Under the pieces are notes generated by a model. That model was not told the origin of the DNA. It did not search any database and saw nothing but the letters and a program-made list of their open reading frames with translations. The position numbers were made by a program, and so were the translations under genes. This document shows, piece after piece, positions 40,759 to 42,917 of a stretch of DNA of 64,000 nt; the first letter of the stretch is position 1; each line of letters opens with the position of its first letter. The DNA lies in the NCBI GenBank assembly GCA_009664345.1, contig CP043547.1, positions 186,001-250,000 on the forward strand, written 5' to 3'. The DNA is from Planctomycetales bacterium 10988. Its GTDB lineage: Bacteria > Planctomycetota > Planctomycetia > Pirellulales > Pb10988.

Positions 40759-41439
40759 ATGTCCTCTGATTCTACTACAGAAACTGCCGCAGATGCTTCA
40801 ACGAATGCTTCACAAGCCATTCGTGACTATCTACAAGACAACAATGACGCTCCCAATAAAGAGGTGATCGCCGCGATTAAGGATCGTTATGGTTTCGAGC
40901 CAAGTGCTCAACTTGTCAGTACGGTTCGCCGACAACGTATGCCGGAAGGAGAAGCTGAATCGGAAAGTCCCGAAACGGAAGCTCCAGCTGAACCCCCAAA
41001 AAAGAAACGTGCTAAGAAATCTTCAAACAAACGCGCTAAAAAAACTACGAAAAGGAGTGCGAAAGGTATGAGTCGTAAAAAGAAATCTACTCGATCGGGA
41101 AGCCTTACCAGTCACATCATTGAATATTTAGAAGAAAATCCCACCGCAAAGCCTGCCGAAGTTCAATCTGCTTTGTCTGACAAAGGGATCAAGGTTTCTA
41201 GCCAATTGATCTATCAAGCCCGAACTCGAATGAATCTTCCTAAATCAACCGGCAAAAAGAAAACCACAAAACGAACGAAAAAGACGACCAAAGTCACGGC
41301 CGCTCCCGCCGTCAAAGCTTCGGGTGAATCGGTTGTCAAATTGAAAGAAGCGAAAGAACTTGTCGCTAAACTTGGCGGGATTGAAAATGCCCGGCAAGCA
41401 TTGTCGGTTCTCGAAGAGCTTCAATTCTCCGAAAACTAG
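40759..41439 (+). CDS. Lysine-rich, histone H1-like DNA-binding protein (inferred)
   Basis: The 226-residue protein has two related helical units of about 42 residues (19-61 and 118-160): AIRDYLQDNNDAPNKEVIAAI with SAQLVSTVRRQRM, and HIIEYLEENPTAKPAEVQSAL with SSQLIYQARTRMN. Each resembles a small helix-turn-helix. Between them (81-112) and after them (161-180) are Lys/Arg/Ser/Thr tracts (KKKRAKKSSNKRAKKTTKRS; KKKTTKRTKKTTK) like histone H1 tails. The C-terminus (190-226) is helical, with LKEAKELVAKLGGIENARQAL. A nucleoid protein is likely; no experimental basis is known to me. AAAGG precedes the ATG and a strong terminator follows. Confidence 0.85.
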   Translation: MSSDSTTETAADASTNASQAIRDYLQDNNDAPNKEVIAAIKDRYGFEPSAQLVSTVRRQRMPEGEAESESPETEAPAEPPKKKRAKKSSNKRAKKTTKRSAKGMSRKKKSTRSGSLTSHIIEYLEENPTAKPAEVQSALSDKGIKVSSQLIYQARTRMNLPKSTGKKKTTKRTKKTTKVTAAPAVKASGESVVKLKEAKELVAKLGGIENARQALSVLEELQFSEN

Positions 41440-41536: not shown

Positions 41537-41577
41537 AAGCTGAGTTAAGAAGATTTTTCTTGACTCAGCTTTTTTTA
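41537..41577 (+). terminator. Rho-independent terminator of the H1-like gene
   Basis: AAGCTGAGT (41537-41545) pairs with ACTCAGCTT (41563-41571), with AAGAA/TTCTT extending the stem, followed by a T run. It ends just before the pyrC start. Confidence 0.92.
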
Positions 41578-41588
41578 TAGGTTTATTT

Positions 41589-42917
41589 ATGCGAACCTTG
41601 ATTCGATATGCCTCCGTTGTTTTGCCACAAAGTATTGAGAAGACACACCTTCTGATTGAGGATAGCAAGATTCTTGAGATCGATGCCGCCGAACATTCTG
41701 ACGCCGATGAGATCGTTGATTGTAAAGGTCTTCACGTGATTCCTGGGGTTATTGATGATCAAGTACACTTTCGCGATCCGGGGCTAACTCACAAAGAAGA
41801 TTTGCACACTGGGAGTCGCGCTTGTGCCAAAGGGGGCATTACCACTTTTTTTGAGATGCCCAACACGAATCCGACCACAACAAGTTGTCAACGACTCGAA
41901 GAAAAGCTGGCACTCGCAAGTGAGAAGTGTGTTGTAAACTATGGTTTCTTTATTGGAGCAACGGAAGATAACCTTGAAGAACTTCAACAAGCAAAACGCA
42001 CCCCGGGAATTAAAATCTTCATTGGTTCCAGTACAGGAAACTTGTTGGTAGATGAACAAGCGGCTTTGGAGAAAATATTTGCGGAAACGAGCCTTCCCAT
42101 TTGTGCCCATTGTGAGGATGAAACAACCATCCGTGAGAATCGTGAAAAGTTAGGAGAACCTAGTTCTGTTGCTGATCATTCAAAGATTCGTGATCATCAC
42201 GCAGCATGGGTTGCCACGAAAAGGGCAATCGATCTTTCAAAGAAATATGAACATCGCTTTCATGTGTTGCATGTTTCAACCAGACAAGAACTCGACTTAA
42301 TCAAAGCTGCTCAAGGGATTGTCACCGCCGAGGTTTGTCCCCATCATCTTTTCTTTAACATTCAGGATTATGAACGCCTTGGCTCACTTGTTCAAATGAA
42401 TCCTTCTATCAAAGACCCTGCCGACAATACTGCCCTCTGGGAGGCATTGAAGTCAAATACCATTCAAGTGGTGGCGACGGATCATGCCCCTCACTTGCTT
42501 GAAGAGAAAGAAAAAAACTATCCACAATCCCCATCTGGCTTGCCGGCTGTAGAAAATTCTCTTGCATTAATGCTTAATCAAGTGAATTTAGGAAAATGCA
42601 CCTTGCAAGAGGTTGTTCACTGGATGTGTGAAGCCCCTGCACGTGTGTGGGACCTGACGAATAAAGGGAGAATTGAAAAAGGTGCCGATGCGGATTTGGT
42701 TTTAATAGATATGGCGAAATCTGACACAATCTTCAATGAAAATCAAGTAACGAAAGCGAAGTGGTCTCCCTGGCATGGAACCACTCTAACTGGTTGGCCT
42801 GTTAGAACTTGGGTCAGAGGGAAGACAGTTTTTCAAAATGGAATCATCACTACTAAACCCCTCGGGGAAGAAGCGATCTTCGATCATTCTTTAAAAGGAT
42901 ATTGGGACTCTGTTTAG
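41589..42917 (+). CDS. pyrC: Dihydroorotase (class I type)
   Basis: The 442-residue amidohydrolase closes carbamoyl aspartate to dihydroorotate in pyrimidine synthesis. The barrel begins [20 protein letters not shown] (53-72); MPNTNPTT, the lysine in [28 protein letters not shown] and ATDHAPH follow in order. The first His of the usual metal motif H-x-H is Gln here (Q58-V-H60), a form I recall from Bacteroidetes-type dihydroorotases, so activity is still likely. No other pyr gene is adjacent. It starts 12 bases after the T run of the preceding terminator, so its promoter must lie further upstream or overlap that terminator. Confidence 0.9.

What the first reader, a model, noticed from the sequence alone, without database searches (positions are those of the whole stretch)
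40759..41439. Histone H1-like protein with two helical repeats separated by Lys/Arg tails
Two 42-residue units of clear mutual similarity alternate with KKKRAKK and KKTTKRTKK tracts. The combination recalls H1-type linker proteins, and planctomycetes are known for condensed nucleoids. The helical unit itself I cannot match to a named family.
Basis: partly seen in the sequence, partly recalled or inferred. Interest (0 to 1): 0.62.

Follow-up and report, generated by a model that had tools for sequence, protein, structure and literature searches.

The report
Two-unit helix-turn-helix planctomycete nucleoid-type protein
This gene encodes a small basic protein with two helix-turn-helix DNA-binding units and a C-terminal helical tail, one of a widespread but unnamed planctomycete family that most likely packs or regulates the chromosome; it resembles histone H1 only in having lysine-rich stretches.

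Summary
ORF 40759-41439 (226 aa) carries two similar ~44-residue units (0 of 5000 shuffles reach their score) and lysine/arginine tracts (+18 and +9). AlphaFold gives each unit as a confident three-helix bundle without a beta wing, so it is not the H1 winged helix. Sequence and fold searches place the unit weakly but consistently among helix-turn-helix DNA-binding domains (ArgR, Sleeping Beauty RED, paired box, sigma-54, Fur). The gene belongs to a large family without a Pfam or NCBIfam model: 70 of 99 genomes of its order, 138 of 249 of its class. Most members have one unit, a basic linker (median net +8, often with AT-hook-like GRP) and the tail; nine of 64 proteins examined have two units. 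The tail also occurs on a Cro/C1-type HTH and on small stand-alone proteins, so it is a portable module, probably for oligomerisation. No phage, plasmid or conserved operon partner was found. Best reading: a lineage-specific DNA-binding protein laid out like a bridging nucleoid protein in reverse order. DNA binding is likely; bridging is inferred. A transcription regulator remains a serious rival.

The parts
40759..41439 (+). coding sequence, 226 aa, predicted pI 9.9, 20% Lys+Arg, no Cys or Trp
40801..40938 (+). HTH unit 1 (aa 15-60); predicted helices 11-27, 33-44, 50-60
   Evidence: AlphaFold pLDDT about 94-97; family profile without window sequences E 2.6e-10
40939..40995 (+). acidic, proline-containing stretch (aa 61-79, net -7), predicted disordered
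40996..41097 (+). basic linker 1 (aa 80-113, net +18), predicted disordered
41098..41232 (+). HTH unit 2 (aa 114-158); predicted helices 116-126, 132-141, 148-157
41233..41298 (+). basic linker 2 (aa 159-180, net +9), predicted disordered
41317..41433 (+). C-terminal helical hairpin (about aa 187-225; helices 189-205 and 208-225), a portable family module
   Evidence: AlphaFold block pLDDT 87-96; found on other proteins
41537..41571 (+). intrinsic-terminator-like stem-loop (16 pairs) followed by a T-run

Best explanation
A lineage-specific DNA-binding protein of Planctomycetia that works like a bridging nucleoid-associated protein. Each trihelical HTH unit puts its third helix against DNA (inferred from fold and distant homology). 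The lysine/arginine linkers, which in many relatives carry AT-hook-like GRP motifs, neutralise or enter the DNA groove (inferred). The C-terminal hairpin joins molecules so that two or more DNA segments are held together (inferred). In this member the HTH unit is duplicated, so one chain could contact two DNA sites by itself.
For: Unit duplication is real. Both units are confident three-helix bundles. Distant matches are mostly HTH DNA-binding domains: Sleeping Beauty RED E 0.006-0.009, ArgR E 0.006 with the larger profile, sigma-54 E 0.06-0.28; Pfam HTH_Tnp_Tc3_2 in 11 of 48, HTH_32 in 7 and Arg_repressor in 6 members, all weak (best E about 5e-4 to 9e-4); Foldseek top rows Pax8, Fur, sigma-54, Pax5/6, mariner. 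Family-wide basic linker, median 21 aa, net charge +2 to +14, median +8. GRP core in 19 of 64 proteins against 1.8 expected from shuffles, maximum 7. The tail is portable: it is fused to an HTH_3 domain that passes Pfam's cut-off and stands alone on small proteins. Broad presence, 70 of 99 genomes of the order, with no shared operon partner.
Against: No direct evidence of DNA binding, abundance or localisation. The codon adaptation index is middling (0.652; ribosomal proteins 0.67-0.83, the two HU homologues 0.637 and 0.753), so nothing marks it as highly expressed. The hydrophobic moment of the tail helices is not above shuffles, so oligomerisation rests on portability and the predicted hairpin only. 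No fold match reaches E 0.001. Several relatives have many paralogues, which fits regulators as well.
Confidence: 0.5

Rival explanations
1. A sequence-specific transcription regulator: the HTH units read a bipartite operator in the manner of a paired domain, and the tail makes dimers.
For: HTH fold; two HTH units with a basic linker resemble PAI-RED paired-like domains, which also carry an AT-hook; the same tail is fused to a Cro/C1-type HTH; several genomes hold several paralogues.
Against: Neighbours differ from clade to clade and are unrelated metabolic or housekeeping genes. Upstream DNA shows no strong operator-like repeat, and upstream regions of seven close relatives share no clear block. 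The long basic linker is more than a typical regulator needs (inference).
Confidence: 0.3
2. A domesticated DNA-binding half of a Tc1/mariner or IS630-type transposase, now a host protein of unspecified role.
For: Best profile matches include HTH_Tnp_Tc3_2, HTH_32, IS3 and IS481 transposase models and the Sleeping Beauty RED subdomain.
Against: All matches are sub-threshold and ArgR matches equally well; no transposase catalytic domain; the flanking genes examined are not transposon genes. This concerns origin and does not exclude the best explanation.
Confidence: 0.08
3. A basic RNA- or ribosome-associated protein rather than a DNA-binding one.
For: High pI and lysine tracts are also typical of ribosomal proteins.
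Against: HTH fold and AT-hook-like motifs point to DNA; the neighbours examined are not ribosomal or translation genes.
Confidence: 0.07
4. A prokaryotic H1-type linker protein proper (winged helix plus disordered basic tail).
For: Lysine-rich linkers around small helical units.
Against: No beta wing in either unit; no Pfam linker-histone match even at E 10; a predicted folded C-terminal module.
Confidence: 0.03

Closest known systems
[quoted passage not shown]
   Same: Two three-helix HTH subdomains joined by a linker, with an AT-hook motif in Sleeping Beauty; helix lengths of unit 2 (11, 10, 10) match those given for RED (aa 67-77, 84-93, 100-109; PMC7827188).
   Different: No catalytic domain; the two units are repeats of each other; a C-terminal hairpin replaces the transposase domain; the sequence match is only E 0.006-0.009.
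H-NS/Lsr2/MvaT/Rok bridging nucleoid proteins
   Same: A DNA-binding domain, a flexible linker (basic in H-NS, MvaT and Lsr2) and a separate oligomerisation region (PMC6936261).
   Different: Order reversed, different DNA-binding fold, no sequence match to their families, and oligomerisation unproven here.
ArgR N-terminal DNA-binding domain
   Same: Similar trihelical core; E 0.006 over 38 positions.
   Different: From general knowledge, ArgR has a wing and a ligand-binding hexamerisation domain; no strand is predicted here and no such domain is present.
Bacterial H1-like proteins (AlgP, chlamydial Hc1/Hc2)
   Same: Lysine-rich low-complexity segments.
   Different: No KPAA-type repeat domain as in AlgP (PMC9239181); basic segments are short linkers between folded units.

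Membership tests
Linker histone H1/H5 | winged-helix globular domain (PMC7801413) | tested here: not met
   Three helices and no beta strand in both predicted units; no PF00538 match at E <= 10. The genome-wide PF00538 search had a silent control and shows nothing.
Linker histone H1/H5 | long disordered basic C-terminal domain | tested here: not met
   Basic segments lie between folded units; the C-terminus is a predicted hairpin.
SAP domain | match to the SAP family or fold | tested here: not met
   No SAP match in Pfam at E <= 10 and none in the 50 listed rows of either Foldseek search.
Helix-turn-helix DNA-binding superfamily | trihelical core with HTH between helices 2 and 3 | tested here: met
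   Predicted structure plus consistent, individually weak sequence and fold matches.
Helix-turn-helix DNA-binding superfamily | binds DNA | not testable with these tools
   Needs a binding assay.
Tc1/mariner-type transposase | DDE/D catalytic domain | tested here: not met
   No transposase catalytic match at cut-off; the 226 aa are accounted for by other parts.
H-NS-like bridging proteins | sequence membership in H-NS, MvaT or Lsr2 families | tested here: not met
   No such Pfam or NCBIfam match.
H-NS-like bridging proteins | oligomerisation domain plus DNA-binding domain that bridges DNA | not testable with these tools
   Domain layout fits in reverse order; bridging needs an assay.
Planctomycetia HTH-basic linker-hairpin family (defined here) | HTH unit, basic linker and hairpin tail | tested here: met
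   Profile E 1.0e-32 with own sequence included; 1.1e-22 for half 2 with own sequence excluded.

The most novel reading that the evidence does not exclude
A planctomycete-specific chromatin system: a family of HTH/AT-hook-like DNA-bridging proteins, sometimes with duplicated DNA-binding units, whose interchangeable tail also exists on small stand-alone proteins that could cap or tune assembly, and which contributes to the condensed nucleoid of these bacteria.
Probability: 0.2. Interest if true: 0.75.

Novelty: new variant of a known kind. Interest (0 to 1): 0.45.

Why it matters
Which proteins condense the planctomycete nucleoid is an open question; only HU homologues were recognised in Gemmata obscuriglobus, and unidentified particles were seen along its DNA (PMC3440768). 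A family present in about 70% of sampled genomes of this order, with no curated model, gives a concrete candidate that can be tagged, deleted and assayed. The portable tail also offers a simple test of how DNA-binding proteins of this class assemble.

Tried and rejected
Whole-protein Pfam and NCBIfam searches gave only chance matches. Homologues in viral contigs: the two hits are subtilisin-like proteases sharing a short peptide and do not match the profile. Phages and plasmids gave no match to one family member. Conserved gene neighbourhood was rejected as a functional clue. Operator-like repeats and conserved upstream blocks were not convincing. Codon bias as an abundance test was indecisive. 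Amphipathicity of the tail was not above shuffles. Alignment scores do not support one single ancestral duplication for all two-unit members: in L065 own units are most alike, in L007 and L028 they are not. Papers on planctomycete nucleoids and proteomes were searched and no description of this family was found in the passages read.

Full report
Observation. The ORF at 40759-41439 (+, 226 aa) is as described. The two units align with score 59 against a shuffle mean of 20.0 (sd 4.1, maximum 46 in 5000), and a family profile that contains no window sequence recognises each half independently. Charge analysis gives unit 1 (+1), an acidic stretch aa 61-79 (-7), basic linker 1 aa 80-113 (+18), unit 2 (0), basic linker 2 aa 159-180 (+9) and a near-neutral tail (-1). 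The acidic stretch and the tail were not in the finding. A 16-pair terminator-like hairpin lies at 41537-41571, before the amidohydrolase-family (probable dihydroorotase) gene at 41589.

Family. A protein search of 58 relatives found matches in 26. A profile (A1) found 138 of 249 class genomes, and a broader profile (A4) 70 of 99 genomes of the order. These are lower bounds, because only part of the first-look candidates is scored per genome. In a phylum-wide draw of 294 genomes 28 matched; 23 belong to the class and 5 lie outside it, only two of those strongly (G277, G404). Other phyla were not searched directly. One family member found nothing in 50,697 phage or 72,556 plasmid records. The window genome holds one full gene; some relatives hold up to nine matches, where a two-unit protein counts twice and tail-only proteins can count too. 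No Pfam or NCBIfam family covers it; scans of 48 members gave only sub-threshold HTH matches.

Anatomy across the family. All 64 proteins examined have the HTH unit and 59 have the tail. The linker between them has median length 21 and net charge +8 (range +2 to +14). Median length is 118 aa and median pI 10.4. The AT-hook core GRP occurs in 19 of 64 proteins against a shuffle mean of 1.8 and maximum of 7; the window protein itself lacks GRP and has plain Lys/Arg tracts. Nine of the 64 have two units. These loci were the best-scoring ones and are not a random sample. Similarity patterns suggest that two-unit forms do not all stem from one recent duplication.

Fold. AlphaFold with family alignments gives helices 11-27, 33-44, 50-60 and 116-126, 132-141, 148-157, with 10-residue-block pLDDT of about 88-97 over the units, and a C-terminal hairpin 189-205/208-225 (block means 87-96); linkers are low-confidence and pTM is low (0.32), as expected for folded units on flexible linkers. 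A second prediction of unit 2 plus tail agrees. No beta strand is predicted, so the unit is a plain trihelical HTH. Foldseek gives no match at E 0.001, but top rows are Pax8 paired box, Fur, sigma-54, Pax5/6, mariner and SETMAR, ArgR and CENP-B. Profile search of PDB sequences independently ranks Sleeping Beauty RED, ArgR and sigma-54 near the top. Individually these are weak; together they point one way.

Tail module. The tail occurs without the HTH unit. In L091 (another genome of the order) it follows a Cro/C1-type HTH_3 domain that passes Pfam's cut-off (27.9 bits against 23). It also stands nearly alone on proteins of about 55-75 aa in several genomes, including the window's own (MSQESKQ...EDLQVLREFVAKVGGVDQAAELFEQLSDSERRAA). 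A module that pairs with unrelated DNA-binding domains is most simply an oligomerisation or protein-interaction device. That is inference: the hydrophobic-moment test was negative, and no oligomer was modelled.

Context. Neighbours are clade-specific and unrelated (acyl-CoA dehydrogenase, HAD hydrolase, protein kinase, MlaE permease, oxidoreductase), with no shared partner. The genome has two HU homologues, so this protein adds to ordinary nucleoid proteins. Codon adaptation is middling.

Mechanism. Shown: the repeat, the family, the conserved architecture, the GRP enrichment, the portability of the tail. Predicted by computation: fold of units and tail. Inferred: DNA binding, oligomerisation, bridging, role in nucleoid organisation. 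The closest functional analogy is the H-NS/Lsr2/MvaT/Rok layout of oligomerisation domain, flexible linker and DNA-binding domain (PMC6936261), here in reverse order. The closest anatomical analogy for the two-unit form is the paired-like PAI-RED domain of Sleeping Beauty with its AT-hook (PMC7827188). Membership in either is not claimed.

H1 question. H1 has a winged-helix globular domain and a long disordered basic C-terminus (PMC7801413); both features fail here. The likeness to H1 is limited to lysine-rich composition. Condensed nucleoids in planctomycetes and the lack of identified condensing proteins beyond HU are documented for Gemmata (PMC3440768), and the P. limnophila study also presumes associated DNA-binding proteins (PMC10632474), so the question is real, but this protein's part in it is untested.

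Noticed in passing
G000:C1:5998717-5998854 (locus L086, ORF 1474-1659 +): A small stand-alone protein of about 56 aa in the same genome carries the same tail module without any DNA-binding unit; possible partner or modulator of the window protein.
   Followed up: partly
L091 105-509 +: The tail module is fused to a Cro/C1-type HTH_3 domain in another genome of the order, showing that it is portable.
   Followed up: yes
L107, L108, L109, L110: A conserved ~58 aa protein (MLSRVEIENLPAHELEILMEYGQDLLSPSELLGVQLFIQRIGG...) ending in the tail module, in four genomes of one genus.
   Followed up: partly
L010, L019, L020, L030: A subgroup keeps the HTH unit but has a different C-terminal segment (for example GGLDAVLLLYKAAQGQ...RQAFLTLVDLLG).
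   Followed up: no
L081 and L082 (G000:C1:1867146-1867412 and 6595066-6595359): Two HU-family genes in the window genome; the second is divergent, with a lysine-rich segment.
   Followed up: no
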